A stretch of DNA of 64,000 nucleotides from Ashinkailepas kermadecensis (lineage: Eukaryota > Arthropoda > Thecostraca > Neolepadidae). The position numbers and the translations under genes were made by a program. Numbering within the stretch: the stretch's first letter is position 1; every line of letters begins with the position of its first letter. The notes beneath the pieces are model-generated. The model made no database searches and was not told where the DNA came from. It saw nothing but the letters and a program-made list of their open reading frames with translations. Shown here piece after piece: positions 17,153-57,433 of the stretch. The DNA lies in the NCBI GenBank assembly GCA_034440615.1, contig JAOTOM010003955.1, forward strand, positions 50,001 to 114,000, in the 5' to 3' direction.

Positions 17153-17311
17153 CGGGACGAGTGGTCTAGGGGTAAGATGCTCGTCTCACAATCGAAAGGT
17201 TGTGGGTTCGAGTCTCACCTGTCGCTACTCTTCGCCGGCGACCAATCGGCGTGAGAGATTGGCGACGCTATATGACTCAACGGTCGACGTGTCGTAAAAC
17301 CAATAACCAAC
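17153..17311 (+). mobile_element. tRNA-Val-derived SINE with 17-bp target duplication
   Basis: The first about 72 bases fold like a tRNA: TGGTCTAGGGG (A-box), D-stem GTCT/AGAT, anticodon loop CTCACAA (CAC, valine), T-arm GTGGG-TTCGAGT-CTCAC (B-box). The anticodon stem has lost pairing, so it is a SINE head, not a gene. CGGAGGCTAGTCGGACT flanks it exactly at 17,136-17,152 and 17,312-17,328. The 3' end (17,263-17,294) folds into an outer stem CGACGC/GTGTCG and inner stem GAC/GTC, followed by TAAAACCAATAACCAACC. This is the same layout and tail as the LINEs here, which points to LINE-driven mobilisation through a shared 3' end. Confidence 0.9.
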
Positions 17312-17328
17312 CGGAGGCTAGTCGGACT

Positions 17329-18214
17329 AGATTTGACCGAAGCCGAAGATCTACCAAATGCTTCATCTCGTGCGGGATGCGAGCCACGACAAAATCGAAC
17401 ACCCGTTTTATAGTGTTGTCATGTGGTGGGAAGTGGAGAGACGGTTCACTGATTTGTCACTGCTCATATATCGGTTCACTGGATCACGCAACATGCTAGG
17501 AGACTTCACTGCTTCTCTGTGTGACCTTCCTCAATTTCCCCTCCCCAGTGCTGATCGTTCCCGCTCAGTATTCTGAGGATTTTTTTTTCGTAGGGTGGAG
17601 GAGGTGATGTCAAAGAAGCCAACTGATGTTTAAACATGTACATATATACATGGATAGTGTCTATTAATGAGTGATTTCAAATGACCTTTGTTGATTGCCT
17701 GACGATGATGATATTGGTAATGCTCCTGCTACCTTTGCCAATCAGGGTAGTTCTGCTGCCAGAAGTTATAATCACTTCTAATGACCGAATAAACGCATTT
17801 AATGACTTCGGTTGCGGAAATGACGTTTCGGATGCAGACGGGCACTGGGGAATGTGCCTCCCCGCCCCCAAAAGGAAAAATGACGCTCCTTCATGAGCGA
17901 GGAAAGGCGCGCGTCCGGTGAGGTTCACGCGCTCCCTTCCCCCTCCGCCGCCGAACTGATTCTTGAGGGAAAGGCGCCCCTCTTAGAGGAAAAGTGCCCA
18001 TGCAGAGGAACATGCATGCATTTCTTCGAGGTAATTGCGTACTTCAAAACGAATACCCCACCCCATAAAAAATCCTGGACCCACCATTGCATCATGTGAA
18101 TGTCAACGTAGAAACAAGTGCACAAATGCTATCTCGGCATATGACAGATCCACTTACCGATCATAATTACAAGCCACATCTGATTCTATGAGAATATACA
18201 TTTGGACTACATTA
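17329..18214. other. No gene recognised
   Basis: Unique-looking mixed sequence. Open frames below 90 codons overlap on opposite strands (17,680-17,930) and show no motif. Confidence 0.45.
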
Positions 18215-19264
18215 GGGTGTTGCGCTGGAGGACTTTTCCTCTCGGAGACAAAATGCCATTGTATATTTTTATGTGGGTAGTCAGGAAAACATTCATGGTA
18301 GCAAAAACCCGGGTTTGATGCGACCCCCATCCAGCCGGCTCGACCTAAAGTTTCCCCATTCACTTACTATGGTGATGACGTCATAATGTATGCCCATTTT
18401 TCAAAACTCAACTCGTAGACGTCGTACGGCTACGAATCAGAGACCAGTGGATTGCTCGCAATGAGAGCTTTCAGATGATGCCCATTTTGATGACCTCAGG
18501 TTAATTAAGTCACCTTCCAGGTCAGGTCAAGTTCCTTATTTTACCCAATAAACGTAATGGATATAAACCGTGGGTCAACCGTCAAAACCTTTTAATGAAC
18601 ATGGTTATGTGCCTTTTCAATGGTACTGAAGGTCATAATCCATCGCGTCATATAATTTGAATGTCTCACAGGTCAAGGGTCAAAGCAGAGTCGGATCTAG
18701 ACCAGCTGTTTGGGGCACCCGTTGGATGTGGAACGGGTTTCTGTGATCCCGTAAGCGGGTTTAGTTCACTGTTTGTCTAAATTTGAAGAAAACCATTTTT
18801 GTGCCCGCTTTCGAAGCTCATCAGCAGGATAAAGCCCCATTTACCCCCCCCCCCCACTGTATCCGCCAGTTTCTTGCGGGATGAAGGAACATTTTGGTCG
18901 GAAGACGGACTGTCAAAGGCACAGCCTGTTGACGCAGTACCGGTGAAGCGATGTCTGGCGAGGGCGCCGGGCGGATCCGAGAGGGCGCCGTTCCGATCCT
19001 GGGGGGTGGGAGTGGGGGTGGGAAGCGATGTCTGGCGAGGGCGCCGTTCCGATCCTGGTGGGGGGGGGGGTGGAAAGCAATGTCTCAACTCAATTTACAA
19101 AACTGCCACTAGGATCGCTAGTGCTGCCTCCACTGAAACTTTGGAAGCCGCAGGCTGGATGGAGGTTGCATAACGTGGGATAAAAATGTGATTTTACTTG
19201 TTCCTAGGGCCCCACCCATAAAATCTCGGTATGGCATTTTGGATCTGCAACTAGCGCAACACCC
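18215..19264. mobile_element. 1.05-kb non-autonomous DNA transposon with about 135-bp inverted ends
   Basis: 18,215-18,354 and the reverse complement of 19,136-19,264 align in order: GGGTGTTGCGCT, CAAAATGCCAT, TTTTATG.GTGGG, CATCCAGCC and AAAGTTTC. The outer ends are GGGTGTTGCGC...GCGCAACACCC, each flanked by TA, consistent with a TA target duplication as in Tc1/mariner-type MITEs. The interior has a poly-C run and a duplicated GCGATGTCTGGCGAGGGCGCC, and no transposase frame. The arms are diverged, so it is old. Confidence 0.75.
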
Positions 19265-20095
19265 TACTCTACATACTCTTCCCTCCAGCCAGCGAGCTCG
19301 GTGAAGACTCCTGAATGCCTTTGGCGTTGACGCGTAGCACCTTCCTGCGAGGAAACGCCAACAATTGCCGATCTTCGGATGGAGTCGGCGGGCGCCCCTG
19401 CACGTGCCATGGAAGATCAGACCTACTGAGTGCTATAGCAACAGCAATCACTTTGAGAGACCACATCCGTGCCTCCGTCCGGCCCCGCTGCGAGTTCAGA
19501 ATCCTGCGCCATTTAGCGACAGCACTGCCGTCTGGCGGTCCGACACGACACTACAGGTTTCCGTATTCTACACGCCGGTGCGCTGACTGTTGTTGCCCAC
19601 GGCGACCACAGAACACAACAGGTGGGGTAGAGCCTGGGCCGGAGCAATAGTCTGGTCTGGACCGGAGCCTGGGCCGGTGCGTGGGCGGAGCAGCAGCGTG
19701 GCGGAGCAATAGTCCAAACTCGTGCTCGGCTAGGTGTCTGATGTGAATAAAAACATTCCGGACCTCAAAGGTACAGCTAAAACTGGATAATGTAAGCTAT
19801 TGCTTGCACAACATTATACATTTTTTATTATACGTAATATTTATTATACATTATACATAATAAATAATACATTTTCATGTGTGTGTGTAACACCAAGGAC
19901 TATACAAATATGCGACTAAATCGAATTCATGTCATCTGCATTTTGCATAACATGAACTTCTAGGACGAAACCATCACGGTTGGTTCTTTGGTTGGCTTCA
20001 CAACGCACTACAGGCTAACGGAAGCTGATACATGCCTTAATAGCTATTACATGAAAAAGCCTTCAGCTAATACCCAAACAGCCTTAAGCTAATAC
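19265..20095. other. No gene recognised
   Basis: 19,265-19,740 is GC-rich with overlapping non-descript frames. 19,740-19,900 is AT-rich with TATACATTATACATAATA-type repetition. Nothing is recognisable. Confidence 0.45.
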
Positions 20096-20195
20096 AGGTG
20101 TTGGCTTCCTGGCGGAAGCCAACACCTACCCGCCGACACCGTCGAGGGTTCCACAAGTGAGATGGTCTCACTTGGTCGCGGCGACCCAGTGAGAC
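20096..20195. repeat. Cluster of three exact or near-exact hairpins
   Basis: 20,096-20,127 is AGGTGTTGGCTTCC, loop TGGC, and its exact 14-base complement. 20,154-20,174 is CAAGTGAGA, loop TGG, TCTCACTTG. 20,165-20,195 is GTCTCACT-T-GGTCGC, G, GCGACC-C-AGTGAGAC, with one mismatch. The middle TCTCACT can pair with either the upstream AGTGAGA or the downstream AGTGAGA, so the last two hairpins exclude each other. Confidence 0.8.
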
Positions 20196-20535: not shown

Positions 20536-20607
20536 GCTTCCTGAGCTCAGACGACTGCCAGCTCTGCACGCTGAGCCGGAACGTGACCGGACGCGGTGAA
20601 CTCAGAG

Positions 20608-20977
20608 TTAGTTGGTTAGTTATTTGGGCTTTAGGGCGCGTCGACTGCTGTGGTAATTTTGCGCCCATAACTCTTGGAGTTAACAAAGTGCAGTAGAATC
20701 GAGCTTCACATCGTGGTTAGCCGTCCACCTGGTCCTATTGTGGTACAAAGTTTACATGCGGTGTATATCAGCGAGGGTTGCATATTGCTGTGAACGAAAC
20801 ATCTGATAAAAAATTAATCAACCGTCCCGATTGGACAGTGGAAGAGTTGTCCGACAGAATATCTCTAAGGGAACCCACCTGAGCAGACCCAAAATAGCGT
20901 CTACCTTCGTCAGCATAACAAGGGCATGAGATGAGAACATGGCGAACTGTCAGTTGTGCTTGACTCAGAGACTCAGA
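20608..20977 (-). pseudogene. 5'-truncated LINE insertion (C-terminal ORF2)
   Basis: The minus-strand frame 20,977-20,768 reads LTVRHVLISCPCYADEGRRYFG and ends FLSDVSFTAICNPR-stop. This matches the ORF2 C-terminus of the full-length LINEs here, including the end of the zinc-finger-like HxxxxC motif. The 3' hairpin (20,625-20,675) and a TTAGTTGG-type tail follow. An exact 12-bp duplication, GTGAACTCAGAG, flanks it (20,596-20,607 and 20,978-20,989). Extreme 5' truncation is typical of LINE insertion. It carries too little of ORF2 to be functional. Confidence 0.92.
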
Positions 20978-21009: not shown

Positions 21010-21392
21010 TGTGTGTGTGTGTGTGGTTAGGGCTTTAGGGCGCATCGACCATGGTAGATCATTCAGCGCCCATAACAGACCAGAGGACCACTTAGTCAGA
21101 GCCATGTCTTAGTGTTGTGGTTGAGTGACTGGTTTTTACTGACCTGAATAGATTATCAAAAATCCCATTTTCATAAAGTATCGACACCTCTTTCATAAGC
21201 AGTCCGAGTCGTCTCGAAGGAGACTGGGGAATGTCCTGTTGGTTCCAAGGTACTGGGCTCTCTCCTGTGCGTAGTGCTGACATGTGAGAATGTGATGTAC
21301 CGTTAGTGGAGAATTGCATCGTGGGCATACTGGCTTGTCTTCATTTATGAGGAGGTGGCAGCGCGTGGTGTATGTGTGTCCGATTCGGAGTC
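21010..21392 (-). pseudogene. 5'-truncated LINE insertion beside host gene stop
   Basis: The minus-strand frame contains LRIGHTYTTRCHLL and CPRCNSPLTVHHILTC, the C-terminal Cys/His module of LINE ORF2, then decays. The 3' hairpin lies at 21,033-21,075. CTCC(A/G)CTCAG at 21,000-21,009 and 21,393-21,402 is a probable 10-bp target duplication with one mismatch. The duplicated site contains the stop codon of the neighbouring secreted-protein ORF, so the insertion landed exactly at the gene's end. Confidence 0.85.
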
Positions 21393-22610: not shown

Positions 22611-22675
22611 TTGGTTGGTTGGTTATTTGGGCTTAGGGGCGCATCGACTGCGTTGGTCATACAGCGCCCATAACG
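22611..22675 (-). promoter_or_regulatory. LINE copy 1 3' hairpin and AACC tail
   Basis: Outer stem GGGCGC (22,637-22,642) with GCGCCC (22,664-22,669), and inner GAC/GTC within the loop. The tail on the sense strand is AAATAACCAACCAACCAA. By analogy with LINEs that use a 3' stem-loop, this is the probable RNA recognition site for the element's reverse transcriptase. The recognition role is inferred. Confidence 0.75.
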
Positions 22676-22769: not shown

Positions 22770-25700
22770 TCAGTGAGGTGTATAAATCGCTCTAAAGTCG
22801 ACATCTGAAAGCAAGCGAAGAAGCTGTCCCGAAGTTACTGCGCGCGAGTGCTCACCTAGGAGATCGCGGAGTGACAGCGACCGCACGACTCCAAAGAGGC
22901 GTCTGCGATCGTCGGCCAGCAGAGGGCACGCAATCAGAACGTGGCGCACTGACAGCGGTGAGTGACATCGAGGGCAGGTTGGCCTGTCCTCTCCACAGAG
23001 AAGATGGTGGTGTGTTGGGTGGGTATGCCCAAGCCGAAGACGGCAGAGCACGACCTCGTCCCGCCTCGTCCTGCGATAGGACGAGGCCCACTCTCCAAGG
23101 CATGGCTTGATCGTTCGTAATTTGTTGTCCTGCAACGTGTTCCAACTATTCTGCCATTTTTCAAAAACAAAGGTCGTAATTGAGTGGCGATGTTCCCTCG
23201 CTGGGAGCGGCATAGACCGCCGGTACGGGGCTTGGGCTGCACGTTTCGCAGCAGCATCCGCTGCCTCATTTCCCACGATGCCGACATGACTCGGAATCCA
23301 GCAGAGGACAGTATCCTTCCCAGCTTGGGCCAGTGATGTGAGACGCAGCAGAATATTCTGTACAATGGGGTCAGATGGGTTGAACTGCTCTAGCGCCCAA
23401 AGGCTGCTGAGTGAATCGGTAAAAATGACGTGCGTGGAATCCCGCCCTACTTCGATAAAACTGAGTGCCTTGATGATGGCAACCAGCTCTGATGTGTATA
23501 CCGTTGCATATGGTGGCAATGAAAAAGACCGCGACAGGGAACCAATAACAAATGCACTCCCAACACCCGAATCAGTCTTGGATCCGTCCGTATATATCGG
23601 GACGTAGCCGTGAAAGGAGGCTATGTGCTCTAGAGCTTGTAACCGACGGTCGTGTGGTGTAGCATGTGCTTTCTTCACCGCAGAGAGTGACCGGTCTATT
23701 GTTGGGTGTGTCACCTGCCAAGGCGGTGTTTGTAGAGAACCGACCCGCATAATTCCCCTCAATCGAATTCCGCTGTCCTCAAAGAGTCTTCGCATTCTGA
23801 CGCAAAAGGGGGTGCCATGCACAGTGCGCGCTCGACCGAATGTTGCAGTCAGGCGCTGGGAGAATACATGCGCATAAGTGGGGTGGTCGGGGAATTGACG
23901 CAGTTTAGAGGCGTAGCGCATCCCGAGCATCTCGCGCCGGAGCGAGAGTGGTGGCTCGTGGGCTTCAGCCAGAAGGCTCACAGAAGGCGAAGTGCGGAAA
24001 GCGCCGGTCACGATGCGGAGCGCTGAATGATGTATCACATCCAGTGATCGTTTGCTTGTTGTACATGCACCGTCATATATAAAACATGCGTAGTCCAACT
24101 TTGAGCGAACGAGGGAACGGTACAACAGGAGCATAGTTTTCCTATCTCCTCCGTAGGACGTGCGTGCGACCATCTTCAGTAGGTTAAGTGATGCAAAACA
24201 TTTCTCCCGGAGTGCTTTAAAGTGTTCTTTGTAACTAAGACGGGCGTCAAAAATTACTCCCAGAAACCGGGCAGTGCGCTGAAAGGGAATTTCCTTCCCA
24301 TACAGCTGGAGAACAGGGTCTGGGCAGCTTCGGCGACGTCGGCAAAAATGCATCCCAACGGTTTTTGAGACAGAGAACTGTAACCCGTTCTTGGAGCTCC
24401 ATCTCTCCAAGCATGATGTAGCCAACTGCAGCTGCCGTGCCATTGACGGTGCACTGGATGTGCAGCACCAAATCGCGACGTCGTCCACGAACAGTGATCT
24501 GCCAACATTTTGTGGAAGAGAGTCGCAGATATCATTGATCATGATTGCGAACAGCGCCACGCTTAATACGCTACCCTGTGGTATCCCTTCAGTTTGTGGG
24601 CATCGGTTTGATAGACAGCTTCCGATCCGCACTCGAAAGAAGCGCCTGGACAAAAAGTTCTGGAGGAAGAAGCCCATAGGTCCACGAATTCCATGTCCGA
24701 AAATTTTCCTCAGGATGCCGTAGCGCCAGGTGGTGTCATACGCTCCGTGAATGTCAAAAAATACTGCACCAATATGACGATTTTGCTGAAACGCTGCCCG
24801 TACCACAGTATCAAGAGATAAAATATGGTCAACGGTGCTGCGGTTTTTCCTAAAACCACACTGTGCGTTATTTAAAATACCATGTCGTTCCAGGAACCAG
24901 GTCAAACGTACGTTTACCATCTTCTCCATAAGCTTGCAGAGTGATGAAGTGAGCGATATTGGTCGGTAGCTCGCCGGGTCTGCGCTGTCTTTTCCGGGCT
25001 TCAAAATTGGGATCATAGTGGCCTCACGCCAAGTGGGTGGGAAATCTCCTCTCTCCCACAGCTGGTTCAGCGTTGCAAGCACGGCATCAAGTGTGCATGA
25101 AGGGAGGTGTTTGAGCATATCGTTGTGTATTTGGTCGGGGCCTTCAGATACGCTCTGAAGGGTAGCAATAGCGGCACGCAGCTCGGACATCGTAAACGGC
25201 TCGTTGTAACTCATACGTTCAGAAGTGAAAAAGTTTAGTGGTTGTCTCTCGCAAGCGGTTTTGTGGCGTGCGAATACGTCATCACTGTAGCACCTACATC
25301 GGTTCGAAATTGTGCGAGCCATCTCATTGGCCACGTCGACCGGCTGGGTGATATCTCTGCCGGCGACTCGTAGTACTGGCAAAGGGGTGGAGTTGAATTT
25401 ACCGGCGATACGCTTGATTCTGGACCATATCTGTGACACAGGTGTGGAACGATTTAGCTTGTTCACGTAGTCCTTCCATGAGGCACGCTTAGCGTCCTGG
25501 ATAGTGCGTCGAGCAATGGCTCGAGCTTGCCGGAAGGCGATGAGATTGGCCATGCTGCTCCTTCGGTCAAAGGCCCTGAAGGCGCGTCGTCTTGCCCGAA
25601 TTGCCTGATGACACTCCTCCGTCCACCACGGGACGGGCGCACGACGGGGAGTGCCAGAGGTGCGAGGGATGGACTTAGTTGCAGTCTGCACCAGCAGGTT

Positions 25701-26495
25701 TGTGAGTCCTTCCACAGAATTAGGGGTGGTACCGGGCCCCACGGAAAAAATATCCTCTAGTTGCATCTCGTATGCTGGCCAGTCGGCCTTCTTAAAATTC
25801 CATCGGCATGGTCGCGTTCCGAGTGCTGCGCCATCCTCGTAATCCAGCCACACCGGAAAGTGGTCGCTGCCTAGGGGGTCGTCGGACACAGACCAGCTAA
25901 AAAGTTGTGCGAGTTGTGGACTACACAAACTGAGGTCCAGGGCAGAGGTATGACCAGAGGGCAGGGTGAGGTGGGTCTTTGTTCCAGTGTTTAAAATGCA
26001 CAAGGATGCATCGTGCATAAATGATTCCAAACATCGACCCCGTGTGTTAACATCATCACATCCCCATGCCGTATGGTGAGCATTAAAATCACCTAGTATT
26101 AAGACCGGTGGGGGCAACTCGGATATCAGTCGTTGTAGCTCAGTAGACGGGAAACCAGTACCGGGTGGCAAGTATAGTGAGCAGATAGAAATAGGACGGT
26201 AATTAAAATGCACTCTTACTGCGACGGCCTGCAGCTTGGCGTGCAGCACTAGTCTCTGCGCCGCCACACTATGGTGGACAGCCAGCAGCACTCCACCATG
26301 TGCAATGGTGCCCGAGGGCAAGTCCTTTCGAAAAACTGAGTAGCATTTTAGGTTATATAAATAGTCCGGTGTCACCTTGGTTTCTTGAAGGCAGATGGCC
26401 GCAGGACAGTGGCGGTTTAGGAGCACCTGGAGGTCTTCCGTGCTAGTCCTCAGCCCCCTACAATTCCATTGTAAAATAGACCGCGGCTGATGCAT
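22770..26495 (-). CDS. LINE ORF2: AP endonuclease, reverse transcriptase, RNase H (copy 1)
   Basis: 1241 codons, uninterrupted. This is the enzyme that nicks target DNA and copies the element RNA onto it. Residues 1-220 are an APE-type endonuclease (LQWNCRGLR with N11, QET with E38, LGDFNAH with D136/N138, SDHFPVW with D211/H212). Residues 480-760 are reverse transcriptase (YRPISL, FFDIHGAYDTTW with D581, GIPQGSVLS, LFVDDVAIW with D671/D672). Residues 962-1085 are RNase H, with D970 (YTDGS), E1003, D1027 and D1080 all present. Residues 1155-1190 form a Cys/His module (CPRCHSPLSVRHVLIAC). It starts directly after a TAA of the ORF1 frame (TTTTAAATG). RNase H points to the I group rather than true Jockey. 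All catalytic residues I can check are intact. Confidence 0.95.
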   Translation of the reverse strand: MHQPRSILQWNCRGLRTSTEDLQVLLNRHCPAAICLQETKVTPDYLYNLKCYSVFRKDLPSGTIAHGGVLLAVHHSVAAQRLVLHAKLQAVAVRVHFNYRPISICSLYLPPGTGFPSTELQRLISELPPPVLILGDFNAHHTAWGCDDVNTRGRCLESFMHDASLCILNTGTKTHLTLPSGHTSALDLSLCSPQLAQLFSWSVSDDPLGSDHFPVWLDYEDGAALGTRPCRWNFKKADWPAYEMQLEDIFSVGPGTTPNSVEGLTNLLVQTATKSIPRTSGTPRRAPVPWWTEECHQAIRARRRAFRAFDRRSSMANLIAFRQARAIARRTIQDAKRASWKDYVNKLNRSTPVSQIWSRIKRIAGKFNSTPLPVLRVAGRDITQPVDVANEMARTISNRCRCYSDDVFARHKTACERQPLNFFTSERMSYNEPFTMSELRAAIATLQSVSEGPDQIHNDMLKHLPSCTLDAVLATLNQLWERGDFPPTWREATMIPILKPGKDSADPASYRPISLTSSLCKLMEKMVNVRLTWFLERHGILNNAQCGFRKNRSTVDHILSLDTVVRAAFQQNRHIGAVFFDIHGAYDTTWRYGILRKIFGHGIRGPMGFFLQNFLSRRFFRVRIGSCLSNRCPQTEGIPQGSVLSVALFAIMINDICDSLPQNVGRSLFVDDVAIWCCTSSAPSMARQLQLATSCLERWSSKNGLQFSVSKTVGMHFCRRRRSCPDPVLQLYGKEIPFQRTARFLGVIFDARLSYKEHFKALREKCFASLNLLKMVARTSYGGDRKTMLLLYRSLVRSKLDYACFIYDGACTTSKRSLDVIHHSALRIVTGAFRTSPSVSLLAEAHEPPLSLRREMLGMRYASKLRQFPDHPTYAHVFSQRLTATFGRARTVHGTPFCVRMRRLFEDSGIRLRGIMRVGSLQTPPWQVTHPTIDRSLSAVKKAHATPHDRRLQALEHIASFHGYVPIYTDGSKTDSGVGSAFVIGSLSRSFSLPPYATVYTSELVAIIKALSFIEVGRDSTHVIFTDSLSSLWALEQFNPSDPIVQNILLRLTSLAQAGKDTVLCWIPSHVGIVGNEAADAAAKRAAQAPYRRSMPLPAREHRHSITTFVFEKWQNSWNTLQDNKLRTIKPCLGEWASSYRRTRRDEVVLCRLRLGHTHPTHHHLLCGEDRPTCPRCHSPLSVRHVLIACPLLADDRRRLFGVVRSLSLRDLLGEHSRAVTSGQLLRLLSDVDFRAIYTPH

Positions 26496-33598: not shown

Positions 33599-33669
33599 TG
33601 GTTATTTCGGGTTAAGGGCGTTTCGACCGAAGCGTGATCATTTAGCGTGATCATTTAGCGGGCATAACT
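33599..33669 (-). mobile_element. Solo LINE 3' tail, rearranged
   Basis: GGTTATTTCGGGTTAAGGGCG followed by a hairpin loop in which CGTGATCATTTAG is duplicated. No coding sequence is attached, only the tail module. Confidence 0.65.
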
Positions 33670-33710: not shown

Positions 33711-34015
33711 TTAGTTAGTTAGTTATTTGAGTTTAAGGGCGCTTCGACCAAAGCGTGATCATTTATCGCCCATGATTTTCAATTCAGCGTTTCAGTTAGT
33801 TATGCGGACACTACAGAAGGTGTCATCGGGGTGAGTAGATGGCTCGAAAACCGATCGCTCTCAGAAAGCGGAATACGTTCCCAGAATGAACTATGTCCGA
33901 GTCATCGCGACATGTGTCGAGCCGTGTATAATTTCCATACAACATCCTTCGGTCTGTTGAGAACTGTCTGTCTGCTGGCACGAGAAATGTAAATGACGTG
34001 CGGTCAGGTTTTCCG
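33711..34015 (-). pseudogene. LINE 3' fragment (end of ORF2 plus tail)
   Basis: The minus-strand frame ends FRFLRAIGFRAIYSPR-stop (stop at 33,823), the ORF2 C-terminus of this clade (compare FRAIYTPH). One frame upstream has RHLHFSCQQTD, matching RHVLISCPLL, so there is a frameshift. The hairpin GGGCG...CGCCC and a TTAGTTAG tail lie at 33,711-33,775. The 5' side runs into the minisatellite at 34.0 kb, so the break point is unclear. Confidence 0.8.
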
Positions 34016-34480: not shown

Positions 34481-35001
34481 GTTAGGGATTGATCATTAGG
34501 GTTTTTGGGTGCGCCAACCCCAATTGGGTTATTTTGCACCCAGAACACGATTAATTCAGCTTTTCATGTCCGGAGAGCTATAATTCGATGGCACGAGTAA
34601 TATTCAAATCTACCCAGGTGTTATGTTACTTGGAATCCTACCGCCGCAAGGCAAAGAAACTGCTCTATTTTGGGCAAATCACGAATTATCACCGAGTAGG
34701 TCCGAGTCCACCAGCCTCAGAGTACACGAGTTATGTCCGAAATGGCGCCTGCGTTCTTCCGTTGTTCCGTGCAGTTCAGGCAAGATACCAACACATGGCG
34801 CACAGTCGGTGCTGCGTCACACCTCACACATTTGAGCCTTTCATTCCCGCATAATAAAAACCCATGTGTAGATAGTGTGTGTCCAATTCTAAGGCGACAG
34901 AGGGCCACCTCGTCCCGTCTACTGTGGCTGAGGGACGAGGGCCACAGCGCTAAGTGTGGTTTAATTTCTGTCAATTTGTTGGACTCCACCTGGCCCCATC
35001 T
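34481..35001 (-). pseudogene. 5'-truncated LINE with 13-bp target duplication
   Basis: The minus-strand frame has LALWPSS, LCRLRIGHT, CVRCDAAPTVRHVLVSC, the end of LINE ORF2, with later frameshifts. GTCATAGGCGGCG flanks it exactly at 34,468-34,480 and 35,002-35,014. The 3' hairpin is a covariant version: outer stem GGGTGC (34,507-34,512)/GCACCC (34,536-34,541), inner stem AACCC/GGGTT. It belongs to a different family from copy 1 but the same clade. Confidence 0.92.
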
Positions 35002-35046: not shown

Positions 35047-35276
35047 GTGGTTGGTTGGTTGTTTGGGTTTGGAGGCGCATCGACTGCGTTGGTCATACAG
35101 CGCCCATAACGACGTTAGATGGACAACTTAAGAAGATTGGTGCCGACAGTAATAAACGGACCTTCACAATAAAGGCGGATCATTTCAAGCTTCTAGTGTT
35201 GCATGTCAGTGGGGTGTAAAAATCGCTCTGATGTCGACATCCGAGAGAAAGCGAACGAGTTGTCCTGAAGTTACAA
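35047..35276 (-). pseudogene. Very short LINE 3' insertion
   Basis: The minus-strand frame reads TSGQLVRFLSDVDIRAIFTPH-stop (stop near 35,215), then the 3' hairpin and a CCAACCAACCA tail, nearly identical to copies 1 and 2. TGA(C/A)CGACTG at 35,037-35,046 and 35,277-35,286 is a likely 10-bp target duplication with one mismatch. Confidence 0.85.
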
Positions 35277-38522: not shown

Positions 38523-38590
38523 GAGGTTGGTTGGTTATTGGGGTTTAGGGACGCATCGACTGCGTCGACAGCGCCCCTAACTACGTTAGT
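38523..38590 (-). mobile_element. Solo LINE 3' tail
   Basis: GGTTGGTTGGTTATTGGGGTTTAG is followed by GGGACGC...GCGCCCCT with a shortened loop. No coding sequence of the clade is attached upstream that I can recognise. Confidence 0.7.
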
Positions 38591-39321: not shown

Positions 39322-39480
39322 TGGTTGGTTATTTGAGTTTTAGGGCGCATCGACCAGGTTTGGTCATTTAGCGCCCATAACTAATAGTGTGCTACCTGCT
39401 AAAAAAAAGGACAGACATTCTTCCGAAGTATACAGTTTCACACGCCTAAGTCACAGGTATACATGCACGATAAAAGCATA

Positions 39481-42400
39481 CTACAACGATGGACAGATGA
39501 CATGGAGCTTAATGTCGGAGATATATTCAAATAATGTGCCCGTGTGGGTAAAACGCGAATCGTGACCTAGAATGTCAGCAAGAGTAAGCGAGTCTACTCG
39601 TTATCCAAAATGCCGTCTTCGCTGCACTCGAAAGCGGGGACATGACAACAGGGCATGACGCACTGTGAGGGGTACATCACAATGGTCGCAGATCGGCCTG
39701 GACTCGTTCATCAGCAAGTAAATATGGGTGGCGTATGTGTGACCTATCCTCAGCCTAGACAGTACTATTTCTTGACATCGGGATTTTCTTACGGATGACT
39801 TCCATAACACTAGGCGGCTTTTCAATGTTTTTAGCTTATTATTCTCAATTGAGTCCCACGCTTTCTGCCATTTGAGCTCGAAGAATGCGTTGATGGTCTG
39901 GTTGAGATTTGTGGCAGGAAGGGGAAGTACATGGCTTACCGGCTGCCCTCTTTGCCGCCGCATCAGCCATGTCGTTTCCGGTAATGCCCACATGGCTAGA
40001 GACCCAGCACAGCGTGACGCTTTTTCCAGACTGGCTGAGGGTATTAAGACGAATCGCGATGTCCTGTAAAAGGGGGTCACGTGGATAAAAGGACTTCAGA
40101 GCCGAAAGACTGCTTAACGAATCTGAGACAACAACATGAGTACTTTCATGCCCCACTTCAATGAAGCATAACGCTTTTTGAATGGCCATCAATTCGGCGG
40201 TATACACGGACGCGTGTGCAGGCAGTGTAAATGACCTTGTATTGGACCCACTCACGAAAGCACAGCCCACACCACTCGCAGTCCTTGAGCCGTCGGTATA
40301 AGTAAAAACACACTCATGATAAGTTTCCAGGTGCTCTAGGGCTTTCATGCGAAAGAGTTCTGGAATCACCTTCGTTTTGCAAGTGTCCGCCAAGTGGATG
40401 TCTATCATAGGAGGAGTCAGTTCCCAAGGCGGAGTTCGTATTAACTCCATCCTCATGATGCTGCGCAGGCGAATTCTGCTCTCCTGCAGCAACTCTCGAA
40501 CGCGAAGACAAAATGGGTTCGAGCTGGTGCCTCTTCGCTGCTGGAATATCTCCTGGATGCGAGAAGAAAACACAGACTCATAAGCTGGGTGCGTGGGGAA
40601 TTGCTTTAGCCTACAAGCGTAGCGCAGTCCGAGTTTTGCTCTTCTCATTGATAATGGCGGCTCATGAGCTTCCGCCAAGAGACTCGCGACTGGCGAAGTA
40701 CGGAATGCTCCCGTAGCGATCCTCAAGGCTGCATGGTGGATGGTGTCCAGTATGCGTTTGCTTGAGGTGCTGGCCGAGCCGTAGACAAAGCAGCAGTAGT
40801 CAAGTTTGGATCGTATAAGTGATCGGTATAGCCGTAGAAGGGTAGTTTTGTCCGATCCGTATGTAGTCCTAGACAGGCATTTCATGAGATTTAATGAACT
40901 ACTGCACGATTCGCGCAGAACTTGTAGATGGTGTCTATAGGTGATACGGCTGTCAAAGAGGACACCCAAGAATCTTGCTGTCGGTCGGAAAGGTATTTCT
41001 TGTCCGTAAAGCTGGATTTTTGGATTGTAGCAGTTTCGACGACGGCAAAAGTGCATAGCTACTGTCTTTGTCTTGGAGAAACGGAAACCATTTACAATAC
41101 TCCACCTTTCCAGATGCGAGACCGCAATCTGCATCTGTCTGGACAGGGATGATGTACGTGATGCTGAGGACCAAATTCCGACGTCATCGACAAACAGCGA
41201 TTTACCAATTCCACGTGGAAGACTATCTCCAATGTCATTGATCATGACTGCGAACAGCGCAACGCTCAAAATACTTCCCTGAGGGACACCGTTCACCTGA
41301 GTGAAAGTATCGGACAGAACATTCCCAATCCGTGCACGGAACGTCCTATCGGCCAAAAAATTATTCATAAAGGTAACCATATGTCCGCGGACGCCAGCAT
41401 TCCAAAGTTTCAGAAGTATACCGTGCCTCCATGTGGTATCATAGGCGCCCTCGATGTCGAAGAAGATAGCGCCTACGTGTCTCTTTTGTTTAAAGCTGGC
41501 TCGGATTTCCGTATCAAGTCTTAAAACATGGTCAATTGTAGAGCGGTATTTTCTAAACCCACACTGCGCGTTCGTAAAAAAAGTTTCGTTCCTCCAAGAG
41601 CCATGTAAGACGCAGGTTCACAAGTCTTTCCATCAATTTACATATACATGAGGTGAGCGAGATTGGTCGATAATGCAAAGGTTCAAAACCGCTCTTGCCC
41701 GGTTTCAACAATGGGACTACGGTAGCTTCTCGCCAAGCGGGCGGAAACTCGCCTCCGCTCCAAACAGCATTAAAAGTCCTGAGGAGCATTTCAAGCGCGT
41801 TTGCGGGGAGGTGACGAAGCATCTCGTTATGCACATTGTCTGGTCCCTCAGACACACAGCGTAAAGAATCAGTTGCTGAAATCAACTCAGTCAGTGTAAA
41901 GGGTAAGTTGTACGAGTGCTGGTCCGGGGTTTCAAAATCAACAGGCGTAGCCTCGCAGTAGGCTTGATGCCGCCTAAACCTGGAGTTACTGTTGCGGTTC
42001 ATGCTGCGTTCTGCAAGGGCGCCAGCGATTGTATTTGCGACATGGTAGGGTTCAATAACGACGCGGCCATCCACGTGTAGAGTTGGTAGTGGAAGTGACC
42101 GAAATTTCCCCGATATACCTTTTATTTGAGACCACACTTGCGATGATGGCACAGAGCGAGTCAGATTGCTGACGTACGCCATCCATGACGCCTTCTTTGC
42201 CTTTCGGATCGTGCGACGTGCAGCCGCCCTCGCTTCCCGAAAAGCTAATAGGTTATCGTTGGTACTATTTCGGCTAAATTGCTTCAGGGCACGGCGCCGC
42301 TTCCTAATCGCTGTTCTGCACTCGTCAGTCCACCACGGGACTGGTGTACGTCGAGGAGAGCCAGCAGTGCGAGGTATGCACTCGAAAGCGCACTGCAAAA

Positions 42401-43193
42401 GTATGGAGGTAATAGTTTGCACTGACATTGCACAAGGAGTGTCGTATTCGCTAAAACGTGCTTGCAGCCGAGCTGTAAAAACCGACCACTCAATTTTTCT
42501 AAAATTCCACCGCTGTGGCCTGGACCCCAGAACTGCTCCTTCCAGGAATTCCAGCCAAACGGGGAAGTGGTCGCTCCCGTGGAGATTTTCCTCCGCGAAC
42601 CAGTCGAAATAATTTGCGATCTGTGGGCAAGCGATACTTAGATCTAGCGCAGAAGTATTTCCAGATGGTAGTGATAAATAGGTTTGTGCGCCAGTGTTCA
42701 GAATACATAGGGACTCCTCCAACATGAAAGTTTCAAGGCTTCTTCCACGTATGTTGGTGTCTGCACATCCCCATACTGTGTGGTGGGCGTTAAAATCGCC
42801 CAGAAGTAAAATTGGTGGAGGGAGCTCGGCTAGCAGTCGTCGGAGTGCTGCAGAAGGCAACGCGGATCCAGGCGGGAGATATATGGAGCATATGCTGATC
42901 GAGATATGACCGAAGACTACTTTTGCGGCTACCGCCTGGAGAGACGTACTCAGAGCCAGAGGTTGGGCGGGAGCACTACTATGCACCGCCAGCATGACAC
43001 CTCCATGTGCAACAGTATCAGTGCTGCGGTCCTTGCGAAAAACCTGGTAGCTACTTAAAAATAACGGGCTGTCGGGTGACAACTTCGTCTCTTGTATACA
43101 TGCGACTACCGGGTTCCTGTGATGTAGTAAAATCTGTAGCTCCTGGAGACTGATCCTGATGCCTCTACAGTTCCATTGTAAAACAAAAGACAT
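39481..43193 (-). pseudogene. LINE ORF2 with two frameshifts and one stop
   Basis: It has the same domain order as copy 1: endonuclease (LQWNCRGIR, IQETK, LGDFNAHH, SDHFPVW), RT (YRPISLTS, GVPQGSILS, LFVDDVGIW), RNase H (YTDGSRTASG, YTAELMAI, VSDSLSS, HVGITGNDMADAAAK) and CDHCDVPLTVRHALLSC. The first frameshift is in a run of seven A/T near 41,577-41,583, after RLTWLLEERN. The second is near 39,955 right after DAAAKR. A TAA at 39,601-39,603 interrupts the frame before its natural end at 39,481 (VICPSL-stop). The amino-acid sequence differs widely from copies 1 and 2, so this is another family. It cannot make a full protein unless the frameshifts are assembly errors. Confidence 0.92.
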
Positions 43194-43251
43194 GTTAACT
43201 AGTAGTGACTAGACTAGTACGGACTAGTGGACTAAACTAGACTAGTACGGT

Positions 43252-43435: not shown

Positions 43436-43436
43436 C

Positions 43437-47845: not shown

Positions 47846-47899
47846 AAGAACATGCCGCAACGGCATATATATTATTACGCGGGTGTGTCACTTTAGCCG

Positions 47900-47935
47900 T
47901 TCGTGCCTAAAGCCCAAATAACCAACTAACTAACT
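47900..47935 (+). mobile_element. LINE/SINE-type tail on the plus strand
   Basis: CCTAAAGCCCAAATAACCAAC followed by TAACTAAC matches the tail of the LINEs but in the opposite orientation to all the other LINE tails in the window. GGCGTATATGACC upstream (47,842) matches the 5' half of the hairpin; the rest is rearranged. Confidence 0.55.
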
Positions 47936-48137
47936 CGGCCAACTCTCGTCACTTACTCGCCTGCTTGGGTGAGGAGCCACCGTCCACTCTGCGGCGCGGA
48001 TAAATATGTGGAAAACGTTACGAGTCGCCAAACGCTAGAATTTCATTTGTTGCGGACTTTATGCAACGCGCACTTGCCAATGCTTGTAGAACGAGGCAAT
48101 TATCCTGATATGTATGTATCCTGTGTCTTTTCCTCAG

Positions 48138-52429: not shown

Positions 52430-54945
52430 GAGTTAGTTAGTTATTGTGGTTTAGGGGCGCATCGACTGCATAGGTCATTTCGCGCCCATAACTTAGTCAT
52501 TTAAACATAAGAGCGAGTGAACGTCAGTTCGGATAACGAGTTATACGACGATGTCGAATCTGTTCATAATACAACTGGTGAGCAAGTTAATGACCGGTGT
52601 AAATCACGCAAAACCCAACTTTCAAGAGGAATTTAAAAAGGTCTCCTGATTGAACACTGACCGACTCATCCCCCAATACTTCCCGAAGCGAGACAGAGGC
52701 ACGTCCAAAGTGACGCTTCCGTTCGTGGGCAAGCCGGGGACACGATACTAAAATGTGTCGAACTGACATGGGCGCGGCGCATCTCGGGCACCGTGGTGTC
52801 TCGTCACCGCTGAGGAGATACCGGTGTGTCGCATAAGTATGTCCCAAACGCAGGCGACACAGGGACACCTCGTGGCCTCTGTTTCGGTGTGATGATGAAG
52901 CCCACTCACCAATAAAGGGCTTTACAGTCTTCAACTTGTTGTTTGTTAGAGAGTTCCAGTTTGCCTGCCACTTGCCCGAAATATAACCTTTGATAGATGA
53001 GTAGAAGTCCCTGGCAGGTAGCGGGAGGGAACGCGTGTACGGGGCCCGTGCACCTCGCTTCGCCGCAGCATCCGCTGCCTCGTTCCCACAGATTCCCACA
53101 TGGCTCGGAATCCAACATAGAATAACCGTTTTTCCAGCGCAGGTCAGCAGTGTAAGCCTACGTAAAATATCTTGTGCAAGTGGGTTCGACGGATAAAACG
53201 CTTTTATAGTCATGAGACTGCTAAGAGAATCGGTGTAGATTACATGCCGCGTGTCATCACATGTTTCAATGAAACTGAGTGCCTTGTCTAGGGCTACCAA
53301 CTCAGACGTATATACAGATGCATGAGGCGGAAGCGAAAACGTCCTGACGACTGTGCCCATCACAAACGCACAGCCAACTCCTGACTCGGTCTTGGATCCA
53401 TTTGTGTAGGTGCCTGTAAAATGAGTGTAAGATGCCATTAACTCTAGTGCCCTTAGTCTGAATTCCTCAGGAACGACCGTGCACTTTTTGAGATATGACA
53501 GCGAAATGTCAATATCTGGAGATGCCAGTGTCCAGGGAGGGATTTTCATCGTTCCGACGCGCATCACTCCGCGTAATCTTATGTCACTGTCCTCAAATAG
53601 TTTGCGAATCCTGACACAGAAGGGAACAGAGCTCACAGGCCGTCGTCTTCTGAAGAGAGCCAGGACGCTTCGCGAAAACACGGGACGGTACGTTGGGTGA
53701 CTTGGGAATTGGCGCAGCTTGCAGGCATACCGCATGCCGAGCTGTTCCCGACGCATATAAAGAGATGGCTCGTTGGACTCTACCAATAGACTAGAAATCG
53801 GTGTGGTGCGAAAGGCGCCGGTGCAGATACGGAGTGCTGAGTGGTGCACGGTGTCTAGTGATCGTTTGGTGGTCAGAGCTGCGCCGTCATAGACAAAACA
53901 TGCGTAGTCTAATTTTGACCGAATCAGGGAGCGATAAAGCTGCAGCAGGGTTGGTCTATCGGCCCCATACGACGTACGCGCAACCACTTTCAGAACGTTC
54001 ATAGACTTAAAACACCTATCTCTGAGCATCCTAAAGTGATGCCTGTATGTAAGTCGGTTGTCTAGGAAGACACCGAGGAATTTGACATTCGTCTCTGTTG
54101 GAATTTCCGAACCATATAGCCTGATTTTCATATCCGGACAGTTTCGACGCCGGCAGAAATGAACAGCGACCGTTTTTGTCGTCGAGAAACTGAAGCCATT
54201 CACCTTCGTCCAACGCTCCAGCCTAGCGACAGCAAGCTGCAACTGCCGCTGCAATATTGGTGTCGATGTGCTGGATGACCAGATCGTGAAATCGTCTACG
54301 AATAGTGAACGGGATATTGACGGCGACAGGCAGGATCCGATGTCGTTGATGATAATGGCAAACAGGGCCACACTCAGCACACTGCCTTGCGGAATCCCGT
54401 TGACCTGTTTGTACCATCGTGAGAGTCGCTCGCCAACACGAACCCGAAACCGACGGTTTGCTAGAAAGTTTTGTATAAAAATAGCCATACATCCCCGCAG
54501 GCCGTAGTCACGTAACTTCATCAGAATTCGATGTCGCCATGTGGTATCGAAAGCAGCTTCGATGTAAAAAAAACACGGCTCCGACATGTCGATGTTGTGC
54601 GAAAGCTGTTCGAATTGCAGTGTCAAGTGTGACTAGGTGATCAATCGTACTTCTGTTTTTCCTAAAACCACACTGTTCATTTGATAAAACGTTCTTGTCC
54701 TCCAGATACCAACATAGCCGAACATTCACCATTCGCTCCATCAGCTTACACATCGATGACGTAAGAGATATGGGGCGGTAGTGTAGTGGGTCAAGTCCAC
54801 TCCTTCCAGGTTTTAGGACAGGTATAACTATGGCTTCCCGCCAGGCCTCCGGAAATACGCCACTCTCCCACAGAGAGTTAAAGGTAGTCAGCAAGATATC
54901 TTGTGCGCATGGTGGAAGGTGCTCAATCATTTGATTCATAACCCT
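52430..54945 (-). pseudogene. 5'-truncated LINE ORF2 (third family)
   Basis: The 3' tail (TTAGTTAGTTATTGTGG) and hairpin (GGGCGC/GCGCCC, GAC/GTC) lie at 52,430-52,492. The coding part runs from RT (MIEHLPPCAQD, WREAIVIPVLKPG, YRPISLTSS) through GIPQGSVLS, LFVDDFTIW, RNase H (TYTNGSKTESG, YTSELVAL, YTDSLSS, HVGICGNEAADAAAK) to VGFCVIYTGH-stop at 52,587. The RNase H first Asp is replaced by Asn (YTNGS instead of YTDGS). A frameshift in an A/T run near 54,566 splits the FFDIEAAFDTTW motif. The endonuclease is absent because the copy is truncated near 54,945. Confidence 0.92.
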
Positions 54946-55725
54946 TCGTTTATGGCGCGACAAGTCCCCGGCTCCGAGACTGGCGTCGGCCTGTCTGCTG
55001 CCTACGTCAGCAGCCACCGCTCCAACGGAGCCGGTCAGTGGACATTGTACCTTCCCCTCCCCTCTCCGGCCGCCAGGCGCCAGAGACGTGACCCCAATAT
55101 CGTGCAGCCGAGGGTTGTACCTTGACCGCCTCTATCCGACCGGCGCGTACAGTCGCCGTCGTTAATGCTAGATGTAACTGTGTTCACATAAAGTTATACG
55201 TTTGGCTGTCCCGTAATCGTAATTGGTATAATCCTGTAAGCCTTGTGATTGTAAAAGTATACCGTAATTGTAACTGTAAAGAGTGTACAGTAAATATCAT
55301 ATAGTACCCTTCACTATATGGAAGTAACTTCCCTTCTAGAAGGCCATGGAAGCTTCGAGAACATGGATGTGACGTCAAGGGGTGGTTCTGCGCCCTCGAC
55401 CAATCCGCGACCGGGGGTCTCCCGAAGTCACTAGCGGCCGTGCGGCCGCCAGGAGTCGGGCTTGAATACTCTGAGCGAGCGGATCGCTGCTACGCGTGCG
55501 CGCTTCCCAACTAAATTCGGCTTCTAAATTCATAGGAAAGGCAGTATCACGGCTTACCTTCAGAGGAGAACGTACTGTACAGACTGTCTGTCGTTCTCGT
55601 GTGATCGTGGATTGCTGCAGTGCAAATACAGGGCAGCAAAAGGTACTGGTGCTTTCGTGACCGAGGTTATCGCAAACGACGAAGTTGCTAGACTTTCGCG
55701 TGCCAATATAGGACTTTCCTACACC
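54946..55725. other. Unclassified stretch, possibly an LTR remnant
   Basis: GC-rich start, AT-rich 55,150-55,320, then a cluster of heat-shock and CRE motifs, a GC-rich patch and TACTGGTGCTTTCGTGACCG at 55,642-55,661, which resembles the primer-binding region after a BEL/Pao-type LTR. No LTR pair or gag/pol was found. A host promoter is an alternative. Confidence 0.3.
55329..55377. promoter_or_regulatory. Heat-shock element array plus CRE
   Basis: TTC at 55,334, GAA at 55,339, GAA at 55,349, TTC at 55,354 and GAA at 55,359 all lie on a strict 5-bp phase. They form TTCTAGAA and GAAGCTTCGAGAA, textbook HSF sites. TGACGTCA follows at 55,370-55,377. Function depends on a nearby transcription start, which I could not place. 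Confidence 0.65.
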
Positions 55726-56412
55726 TGGATGCGGTTGGCGTCTTGGTTACAAAGTGCTTAAATGTATATTGAGCATGTTTCCTCCGTTTACATACCCCAT
55801 TGACTTAACGTGGCGATCGCACTTTTTCTCTTCTGCCTAAGTAAACGAGCCAGTGGCGCACATCAAGGCGATTTCATACGGCGCACACTATTCGGCGCAG
55901 TCGCTTCCGCCGGGTTGCGTCGAGGGGAAGAGGTTTGACACCAATTTTTTAAATCTACAATATAATTAACTTGACAAATATTGAGGTATCAAAATACAAT
56001 ATTTAATGCACAAGAGACTTCGATGTTATCAGTAGCTAAATAATGATTCAATATAAGTAAACGGGCCAGTGGCGCACATCAAGGCGATTTCATACGGCGC
56101 ACACTATTCGGCGCAGTCCCTTCCGCCCGGTTGCGTCCATACGGCGCACACTATTCGGCGCAGTCCCTTCCGCCCGGTTGCGTCGAGGGCAACAGGTTTG
56201 GAAGTTGGGTGCTGCGTGAACGTTTGATTGCCAAGGTATGCGGTGTTGTCGACTGGTTGATATTGCTTGTTTTTCTAATGTACTCTCCAATGTGTGAAAT
56301 GCGACGGATATTTACGTGTAAATTTTTATGCACATGAAGTTCGCTCAATTACGTAGGTACCTACCTATGTATAATACTTTTGTGGCGCAGTGGCAAGATG
56401 TATGTCCAGACC
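55726..56412. repeat. Second copy of the 51.1-52.4 kb block
   Basis: CTGGATGCGGTTGGCGTC onward matches 51,667 onward almost base for base to about 56,200, with three more GGCGCACACTATTCGGCGCA motifs (55,878; 56,095; 56,143). It then matches 51,235-51,420. It is interrupted at CCAGACCCTAA by the LINE tail at 56,415. Confidence 0.9.
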
Positions 56413-56414
56413 CT

Positions 56415-56762
56415 AATGATGATGATGAATTGGTGTTTAGGGGCGCGTCGACTGCAAAGGTCATTTTGCGCACATAACTGTGTTGATAGCTAATCTATTA
56501 TGCTCCTATAGTAGTCAGTAATTAATAGTCTTCAGGGGCGGCGATATACTACATCAAAACGTGCTTGTTGAAGAAAAGTAAAAATGTATCCAGACGATAC
56601 AACCTCAGATTCATTGTTTAGTAGCATTCGTAAAGTGTCGATGTTTACCAGTCCAAAAATATGGCGTCGGAGGGGGTCCAGTAGTACACAATCTACTAAA
56701 ACATGATACACGGTAAGCGGGTCCGAACAGCGTGGGCATAAAGGTTGGTCATCACCGGTCAG
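56415..56762 (-). pseudogene. LINE 3' end, first of two tandem copies
   Basis: About 345 bp nearly identical to 56,763-57,112: an ATGATGATGAATTGG tail, hairpin GGGCGC...GCGCAC, and the end of ORF2. It stops exactly at CCGGTCAGT, where the second copy's tail begins, so a 5'-truncated copy sits head-to-tail against the longer one. Confidence 0.88.
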
Positions 56763-57278
56763 TATGATGATGATGAATTGGTGTTTAGGGGCGCGTCGAC
56801 TGCAAAGGTCATTTTGCGCCCATAACTGTGTTGATAGTTAATCTATTATGCTCCTATAGTAGTCAGTAATTAATAGTCTTCAGGGGCGGCGATATACTAC
56901 ATCAAAACGTGCTTGTTGAAGAAAAGTAAAAATGTATCCAGACGATACAACCTCAGAGTCATTGTTTAGTAACATTCGTAAAGTGTCGATGTTTACTCGT
57001 CCTAAAATATGGCGTCGGAGAGGGTCCAGTAGTACACAATCTACTAAAACATGATACACAGTAAGCGGGTCCGAACAGCGTGGGCATAAAGGTTGGTCAT
57101 CACCGGTCAGTATATAGCTATGTGTTGCGAATGTATGGCCAATCCTCAATCGGCAGAGCGTTACTTCCTCCCGTCGCGAGGTCCGGTGTGAGGACTGCCA
57201 TATACCCAGTACCGGCTTTATAACCCTCAACTTACTAGGTTTGGAGTTCCAGGTTCGTTGCCATTCGGACCGTATATG
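56763..57278 (-). pseudogene. 3' part of an older LINE, interrupted by LINE copy 2
   Basis: The minus-strand frame runs from SEWQRTWNSKPSKLRVIKPV through LCRLRIGHTFATH and CPRCSDPLTVYHVLVDC to FDVVYRRP-stop (56,880). It then has a hairpin and an (ATG)n-type tail. The frame continues across the target duplication into 63,847-64,000, which supplies the upstream RNase H region. The element was coding-competent over this stretch before copy 2 inserted. Confidence 0.92.
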
Positions 57279-57433
57279 TTGGTTGGTTATTTGGGCTTAA
57301 GGGCGCATCGACTGCGTTGGTCATACAGCGCCCATAACAATTTTAGATGGACAACTTAAGAGGATTCATGCCAACGGTAGTACGCGAGCTTTCAAAATAT
57401 AGGCAGATCATTCCGAGCTTATAGTGCTACGTG

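What the first reader, a model, noticed from the sequence alone, without database searches (positions are those of the whole stretch)
17263..57338. One 3' hairpin shared by several LINE families and by a tRNA-derived SINE
In sense orientation the LINEs end GGGCGC - TGT - ATGAC - loop - GTC - GAT - GCGCCC - TAA... - AACCAACC. The SINE at 17,153-17,311 ends CGACGC - TAT - ATGAC - TCAACG - GTC - GAC - GTGTCG - TAA... - AATAACCAACC. Same order, same inner stem, a different but still pairing outer stem, same tail. At least twelve LINE copies or tails carry it (20.6, 21.0, 22.6, 33.6, 33.7, 34.5, 35.05, 38.5, 39.3, 52.4, 56.4/56.8, 57.3 kb), across families whose ORF2 proteins are quite different. 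Known precedent: eel UnaL2/UnaSINE1 share a 3' stem-loop recognised by RT. Here the hairpin would be the handle the SINE uses to borrow the LINE enzyme.
Basis: partly seen in the sequence, partly recalled or inferred. Interest (0 to 1): 0.9.

Follow-up and report, generated by a model that had tools for sequence, protein, structure and literature searches.

The report
Shared LINE and SINE RNA handle
An animal genome is full of LINE jumping genes and a tRNA-derived SINE that end in the same folded RNA hairpin, very probably the handle that the copying enzyme grips, and many insertions are nothing but that hairpin and its tail, which marks where the handle begins.

Summary
The tRNA-Val-like SINE (17,153-17,311, 17-bp target-site duplication) ends in the same shape. 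Five of nine pairs change on both sides across 11 families (0.7 in shuffles). The SINE family is large: 15,362 pattern matches in the 908-Mb genome, 7 for the reversed control. Two Solemya-associated LINEs (ORF2 about 40% identical) keep the layout with unrelated stem letters. A shared reverse-transcriptase handle is well supported by anatomy but not tested biochemically; as a LINE/SINE pair it is a new member of a known kind.

New here: 42 of 118 independent LINE-type insertions that I sampled consist of only hairpin plus tail between duplications, with 5' ends piled up at the hairpin base or within its 5' arm (permuted flanks about 0.05). Only 11 other resolved ends fall within 175 nt. None of 11 independent SINE insertions does this. 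I read these as copies of LINE RNA cut back to its protected handle, or as a stop at the handle edge. They give SINE birth by template switching a natural breakpoint.

The parts
17136..17152 (+). left target-site duplication of the SINE (CGGAGGCTAGTCGGACT)
   Evidence: exact 17-bp repeat at 17312-17328
17153..17226 (+). tRNA-Val(CAC)-like head of the SINE with B box GGTTCGAGTC
   Evidence: ARAGORN 17154-17226; Rfam RF00005 36.1 bits
17227..17262 (+). short body of the SINE, not LINE-like
   Evidence: shared by the SINE copies
17263..17294 (+). SINE 3' hairpin CGACGC-TAT-AT-GAC-TCAACG-GTC-GAC-GTGTCG
17295..17311 (+). SINE tail TAAAACCAATAACCAAC
17312..17328 (+). right target-site duplication of the SINE
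57434..61162 (-). LINE A ORF2 (endonuclease, RT, RNase H), 1242 aa
   Evidence: Pfam
57301..57333 (-). LINE A 3' hairpin GGGCGC-TGT-AT-GAC..GTC-GAT-GCGCCC
22770..26495 (-). LINE B ORF2, 1241 aa, 80% identical to A
22637..22669 (-). LINE B 3' hairpin
39496..43208 (-). LINE C ORF2 in broken pieces
39343..39376 (-). LINE C 3' hairpin
52587..54996 (-). LINE D ORF2, 3' part
52455..52487 (-). LINE D 3' hairpin, tail (AACT)n
56789..56821 (-). LINE E 3' hairpin, tail (ATC)n
56441..56473 (-). LINE F 3' hairpin (one outer mismatch), tail (ATC)n
38548..38577 (-). damaged 3' hairpin with internal deletion
35073..35105 (-). LINE G 3' hairpin
34507..34541 (-). LINE K 3' hairpin with compensatory outer (GGGTGC/GCACCC) and inner (AAC/GTT) stems
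33737..33771 (-). LINE L 3' hairpin (one outer mismatch)
33616..33668 (-). LINE tail with duplicated hairpin segment (33.6 kb)
21038..21071 (-). LINE H 3' hairpin
20634..20666 (-). LINE I 3' hairpin (one inner mismatch)
6477..6560 (-). handle-only insertion: hairpin 6515-6547 plus tail between imperfect duplications ACAAAACAAGGTTG / ACAAAAGAAGGTTG

Best explanation
The hairpin is the 3' recognition handle of a clade of stringent-type LINEs with endonuclease, RT and RNase H domains. ORF2 protein grips the folded 3' end of its own RNA and primes reverse transcription from the tandem tail at a nicked target. A tRNA-Val-like SINE carries the same handle and tail and is copied by that enzyme in trans. 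Shown: the shared architecture, compensatory changes, common tails, target-site duplications on both kinds of element, a very large SINE family, and conservation of shape without sequence in two Solemya-associated relatives. Also shown: many LINE-type insertions are only handle plus tail, starting at the hairpin base or inside its 5' arm. Inferred: ORF2 binding; that handle-only insertions copy LINE RNA cut back to its protein-bound handle (or arise from a stop of RT at that edge); that the SINE got its handle by a template switch at the same edge.
For: Architecture far above shuffles. Double changes in 4 of 9 pairs on 14 rows and 5 of 9 pairs on 11 rows, 0 of 500 shuffles as high. The SINE differs from the LINEs by two double changes in the outer stem and still pairs. 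41 SINE matches listed, 40 of them near full length at 97-100% identity, from 40 scored of 299 candidates. The 30 SINE copies fetched carry hairpin and tail. 15,362 pattern matches against 7 reversed. LINE core 3,567 against 0 and 4,221 against 0. Solemya L002 and L003: 6-bp outer stem, 4/2 internal loop, 4-bp inner stem ending one base before, or directly at, TAAACC, as RNAfold gives for several window LINEs; shuffled frequencies 0.006 and 0.005. Handle-only insertions: 25 of 76 plus 17 of 42 independent LINE-type insertions, permuted 0.05 and 0.
Against: No binding or retrotransposition assay. The double changes come from three families (SINE, 34.5-kb LINE, GGGCAC family), so independent events are few, and the controls do not model the tree. 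The inner stem is nearly invariant and could be read as sequence rather than structure. No LINE with the SINE's outer stem was found, so the direct partner is not identified. Only two Solemya ends were found, so the cross-species statement rests on two elements.
Confidence: 0.8

Rival explanations
1. The hairpin serves another step, such as 3'-end formation, stability or export of the LINE and SINE RNA, and RT recognises mainly the tail repeats or the sequence ATGAC/GTCGA.
For: ATGAC and GTCGA are nearly invariant within the window.
Against: The SINE has a tRNA-type head and so is presumably a Pol III transcript, with a different 3'-end route from the LINE (inference). In Solemya L002 and L003 the inner-stem letters are replaced while the shape stays. 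Tail units differ between families, so the tail alone is not the common feature. The copied unit in handle-only insertions is this hairpin plus tail.
Confidence: 0.12
2. Handle-only insertions arise because RT often lets go when it has copied through its own handle (abortive target-primed reverse transcription), not because the template was trimmed.
For: 16 of 35 short events have their 5' end at +1 or further inside the hairpin rather than at or upstream of its base (overlapping data).
Against: The SINE has the same handle but shows no such stops: 0 of 11 independent insertions against 42 of 118 (about P = 0.01 by my own arithmetic from those counts; a small sample).
Confidence: 0.35
3. The SINE is mobilised by some other LINE and shares the hairpin only by ancient descent.
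For: No LINE with the SINE's outer stem was seen among the held loci (46 of 46 GTGTCG hairpins are in SINEs).
Against: Same tail unit (AATAACCAACC), same TAAA junction, same hairpin geometry, similar duplication lengths, and many LINE-type hairpins of this clade in the same genome.
Confidence: 0.06
4. Chance or simple sequence similarity of short palindromes.
For: The bare ATGAC-N-GTC pattern is not enriched in the window; 10 of the 21 architecture hits are not element ends.
Against: Shuffles, covariation and thousands of genomic copies with control counts of 0 to 18.
Confidence: 0.01

Closest known systems
UnaL2 / UnaSINE1 (eel) and ZfL2-1 / ZfL2-2 (zebrafish), stringent-type L2-clade LINEs (PMC4176376: abstract, introduction and discussion read)
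   Same: A 3' stem-loop recognised by ORF2; SINE and LINE share a 3' tail; tandem repeats at the end (TGTAA for UnaL2, per a passage of PMC3747384).
   Different: Different LINE clade: this ORF2 has an RNase H domain. There is a two-part stem with an asymmetric internal loop. Here the inner stem is conserved while the terminal loop varies; in ZfL2 the loop carries the specificity. Handle-only insertions are not mentioned in the parts read.
Plant L1-clade LINE/SINE pairs with a conserved 3' structure (PMC3747384, passages read)
   Same: Compensatory changes in the stem of a 3' hairpin shared by LINEs and SINEs.
   Different: L1 clade and plants; other conserved letters (CGAG, UCU).
I-clade LINEs with tandem 3' ends (I element, TAA repeats: passage of PMC3747384), and the mosquito SINE Gecko paired with MosquI (recalled; the paper search on it failed)
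   Same: Tandem-repeat tails; domain order with RNase H and a SINE with a LINE-like 3' end (recalled).
   Different: No shared hairpin known to me there (recalled). The clade position of the present LINEs was not resolved.
Mollusc and other invertebrate SINE families (V-, Meta-, Nin- and others; the MetaSINE and Matetovici et al. 2016 papers are not held, nothing read)
   Same: tRNA head plus LINE-derived 3' end (recalled).
   Different: Not compared. The body here is only about 36 bp, and I tested for none of the known core domains.

Membership tests
Stringent-type LINE/SINE pair | SINE and LINE share the 3' end | tested here: met
Stringent-type LINE/SINE pair | 3' stem-loop kept by compensatory change | tested here: met
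   phylogeny-aware test not available
Stringent-type LINE/SINE pair | ORF2 binds the stem-loop; mobility needs it | not testable with these tools
   needs binding and cell assays
L2 clade (UnaL2, ZfL2) | L2-type ORF2 without RNase H (recalled) | tested here: not met
   RNase H domain found in ORF2 A and B and in the 3' parts of C and D
I superfamily LINE (I, Nimb, Ingi) | endonuclease, RT and RNase H in one ORF2 | tested here: met
   (domain order as the mark of this superfamily is recalled)
I superfamily LINE (I, Nimb, Ingi) | grouping with a named clade in an RT tree | not tested
   no named reference sequences at hand; of 379 homologues 120 are listed, few with a name
tRNA-derived SINE | tRNA-like head with internal promoter boxes | tested here: met
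   among the 28 further SINE loci given to ARAGORN, 16 are called tRNA-Val, 2 tRNA-Ala, 10 not called
tRNA-derived SINE | many dispersed copies with target-site duplications | tested here: met
tRNA-derived SINE | Pol III transcription | not testable with these tools
   no expression data
Known SINE core-domain superfamilies | conserved central domain | not tested
   no reference set available

The most novel reading that the evidence does not exclude
Handle-only insertions are a genomic footprint of the reverse transcriptase on its template. LINE RNA is degraded from the 5' side down to the ORF2-protected hairpin, and this residue of about 33 nt plus tail is still primed and inserted. That would make hairpin plus tail the smallest sufficient retroposon, and the hairpin base the breakpoint at which new SINEs are born by switching to a tRNA.
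Probability: 0.35. Interest if true: 0.85.

Novelty: new variant of a known kind. Interest (0 to 1): 0.66.

Why it matters
It extends SINE parasitism through a 3' RNA handle to LINEs with an RNase H-bearing ORF2, in a genome with over 15,000 SINE pattern matches. It also yields natural deletion mapping of the handle: dozens of independent insertions begin at its 5' edge. That offers a testable statement of what the enzyme needs (hairpin plus tail) and a natural breakpoint for how SINEs acquire LINE ends.

Tried and rejected
Chance explanation rejected. Bare ATGAC-N-GTC motif: not enriched, dropped as evidence. The kink-turn idea for the internal loop does not fit the order of letters (by reading only). 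Scans of viral contigs with ORF2 found no relative. One search scanned five of these (L001-L005), and only L002 and L003 showed a TAAAC-plus-tail end; L006-L008 were only read. An alignment with the Solemya rows (A3) misplaced L003 and was not used for counting. The covariance model R1 was built but could not be used on this genome. A count of TGTTAT before GGGCAC did not complete. A 3'-anchored SINE search (ATGACTCAACGGTCGACGTGTCG) did not complete, so SINE truncation rests on 15 places, 11 independent insertions after collapsing.

Sampling limits: one search uses 98 of the first 100 listed places (628 matches; two were not fetched) and the first 63 of 100 listed places (4,221 matches). Copies were collapsed by flank similarity; one group of 19 is a hairpin fixed inside another repeat. 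One search left 21 of 118 LINE-type insertions unresolved, and 44 have no duplication in range but share upstream sequence with another insertion. The earlier analyses gave the same peak on overlapping data and are not independent of it. Three of the 35 events have duplications of 27-41 nt in tandem sequence and are doubtful; one search drops duplications of 26 nt or more. Among the 30 SINE copies, three (L162, L164, L165) share their flanks and are one insertion copied.

Papers: read in part were PMC4176376 (abstract, introduction, discussion), PMC3747384, PMC4476161 and PMC11203168 (passages only). Search listings only. Some searches failed or timed out. I make no claim that handle-only insertions are absent from print; I only did not meet them in these readings.
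Full report
WHAT IS THERE. The window (64 kb of a 908-Mb assembly, contig 3458) holds many LINE copies on the minus strand. Their ORF2 carries endonuclease, RT and RNase H domains. The long ORF2s are 55-80% identical and short C-terminal fragments 38-55%, so they are several families of one clade. Relatives at about 60% identity occur in unnamed contigs of public collections. Relatives at about 40% occur in records of bivalve-associated bacteria, which I read as host DNA.

THE HAIRPIN. In sense orientation the typical LINE ends GTTAT-GGGCGC-NNN-AT-GAC-loop-GTC-GAY-GCGCCC-NTAAA-tail. Single-sequence folding gives a 6-bp outer stem, an internal loop of 4 and 2 nt and an inner stem of 4 bp or more in most copies; the 20.6- and 6.5-kb copies do not fold this way alone. 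The SINE at 17,153-17,311 ends CGACGC-TAT-AT-GAC-TCAACG-GTC-GAC-GTGTCG-TAAAACCAATAACCAAC and folds alike. The bare ATGAC/GTC pattern is no more frequent than chance. The full architecture is: 21 hits against 4.6 in shuffles, of which 11 are element ends, 6 one tandem array and 4 chance-like. The 9 hits without outer mismatch (shuffles 0.45) are all element ends. Of the 11 hits followed by TAA (shuffles 0.15), 9 are element ends.

COVARIATION. On 14 aligned ends, 96.0% of cells pair (shuffled 91.8) and 4 of 9 pairs show a double change (shuffled 0.5). On 11 family representatives, two of them from elsewhere in the genome, the figures are 98.0% (92.7) and 5 of 9 pairs (0.7). For these measures no shuffle of 500 was as high, and slid registers collapse. 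Examples: GGGCGC/GCGCCC in most families, GGGCAC/GTGCCC (L188), GGGTGC/GCACCC (34.5 kb), CGACGC/GTGTCG (SINE); inner GAC/GTC against AAC/GTT (34.5 kb). The double changes come from three families, and these controls do not model the tree.

CONSERVATION OF SHAPE ELSEWHERE. Two LINE ends in Solemya-associated records (L002, L003; ORF2 about 40% identical) have wholly different letters (TGTCCC..GGGACA and CGTCTC..GAGACG; inner TAGC/GCTG and AACA/TGTT). They show the same 6-bp, 4/2, 4-bp layout one base before, or directly at, TAAACC. Shuffled frequencies are 0.006 and 0.005. They are the only ends with TAAAC plus a tandem tail among the five loci scanned there; the other three loci were only read.

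THE SINE FAMILY. The head is called tRNA-Val(CAC) by ARAGORN and matches Rfam tRNA. A DNA search scored 40 of 299 candidates and lists 41 matches, 40 of them near full length at 97-100% identity, which is a lower bound. The 30 copies fetched carry hairpin and tail, and many show a clear duplication; the number of CAAC units varies, as expected for slippage at priming. Genome-wide, a B box followed at SINE distance by the hairpin core occurs 15,362 times, against 7 for the reversed pattern. The 100 places listed look like one family with subfamilies.

HANDLE-ONLY INSERTIONS. Many hairpins in the genome have no LINE sequence upstream. Comparing the sequence after the tail with that before the hairpin reveals target-site duplications that abut the hairpin itself. 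Two samples were chosen by the 3' part or core of the hairpin, so the 5' end was free. They gave 129 independent insertions after collapsing repeats. Among 118 LINE-type insertions, 42 (25 of 76 and 17 of 42) start within -26 to -8 of the GTCGA anchor, the stem base being at about -21. Permuting flanks gives 0.05 and 0. Only 11 other ends (6 and 5) were resolved within 175 nt, against 1.2 and 0.35 by permutation. 44 insertions lack a duplication in range but share upstream sequence with another insertion, as ordinary longer LINE copies do, and 21 are unresolved. In the overlapping data the short inserts are 38-70 nt long, and 32 of 35 duplications are 10-16 nt. Several LINE families with different tails contribute. 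The window has one at 6,477-6,560. PMC3747384 (passage) states the usual view that LINE copies are truncated at various positions, 100-1,000 bp; a sharp peak at the handle is different from that.

WHY. Two mechanisms fit. First, the RT may stop or let go when it reaches the edge of its handle; the ends inside the 5' arm (16 of 35) fit this. Second, LINE RNA may be trimmed from the 5' side down to the protein-bound hairpin and then copied. This fits the absence in the SINE: of 11 independent insertions none is handle-only, 4 have resolved ends at the tRNA start and 7 keep the SINE body (one search shows the copies). The difference is suggestive (about 0.01 by my own arithmetic) and the sample is small. 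I favour the second mechanism slightly or a mixture of both. Either way the 5' edge of the hairpin looks like a functional boundary, and it is where LINE-like sequence starts in the SINE. Template switching as the origin of SINE tails has been proposed before (Gilbert and Labuda 1999, as cited in a passage of PMC4476161). Here the boundary offers the breakpoint.

WHAT GRIPS THE HANDLE. In zebrafish L2 LINEs the region between endonuclease and RT binds the stem-loop, a conserved part reading the stem and a variable part the loop (PMC4176376). The present ORF2 has a basic, fairly conserved stretch at about residues 281-360 in that place. That is a candidate only.

VERDICT. The LINE/SINE pair is a new member of a known kind. 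The handle-only insertions make it a new variant worth a specialist's attention.

Noticed in passing
L299 group (19 members); also L134, L136, L199, L200, L212-L213 and others: Handle-only inserts sit fixed inside other repeat families and have been amplified as passengers; at least two such repeats account for many genomic hairpin copies.
   Followed up: partly
window 57278-57338, 52433-52492, 20611-20671, 17258-17311: LINE GTTAT just before the hairpin could pair with ATAAC at the start of the tail; in the SINE ATTGG could pair with CCAAT. Seen by reading only; not seen in the two Solemya ends.
   Followed up: no
window 43912-45132 + and 47899-47936 +: A distant RT (RVT_1, E 1e-9; about 25% identical to the LINE ORF2s) on the plus strand, and downstream a similar TAAAGCCCAAATAACCAACTAAC tail without a hairpin that I could recognise.
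   Followed up: partly
L002 (Solemya velum symbiont scaffold), L003: Animal LINE sequence in records deposited as bacterial symbionts; in L002 a 517-aa ORF precedes the 1236-aa ORF2 and no other ORF of 150 aa or more follows in the next 5.9 kb, so probably host DNA in the scaffold.
   Followed up: partly
L005 and L007, ends shown: Two more distant LINEs (29% and 25% identical) end in ATG-type tandem repeats with a possible small hairpin some bases upstream (CATGC..GCATG; CTCGC..GCGAG). Read by eye, not tested.
   Followed up: no
L144 near position 1500: A SINE copy whose tail runs straight into a second partial SINE 3' part, suggesting a template jump or nested insertion.
   Followed up: no
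window 10436-10628, 16900-17080, 34000-34420: Short tandem arrays (units such as TGATGCATGATAGTCATCCGGAC; GTCTGCTCTGTGTCTGACAGCGG; GTACACCGCCGTACCCTGCGACC).
   Followed up: no
window LINE tails: Tail units change between families while the hairpin stays: AACC, AACT, ATC in the window, CAC in other copies, ATTCC in Solemya L002.
   Followed up: partly
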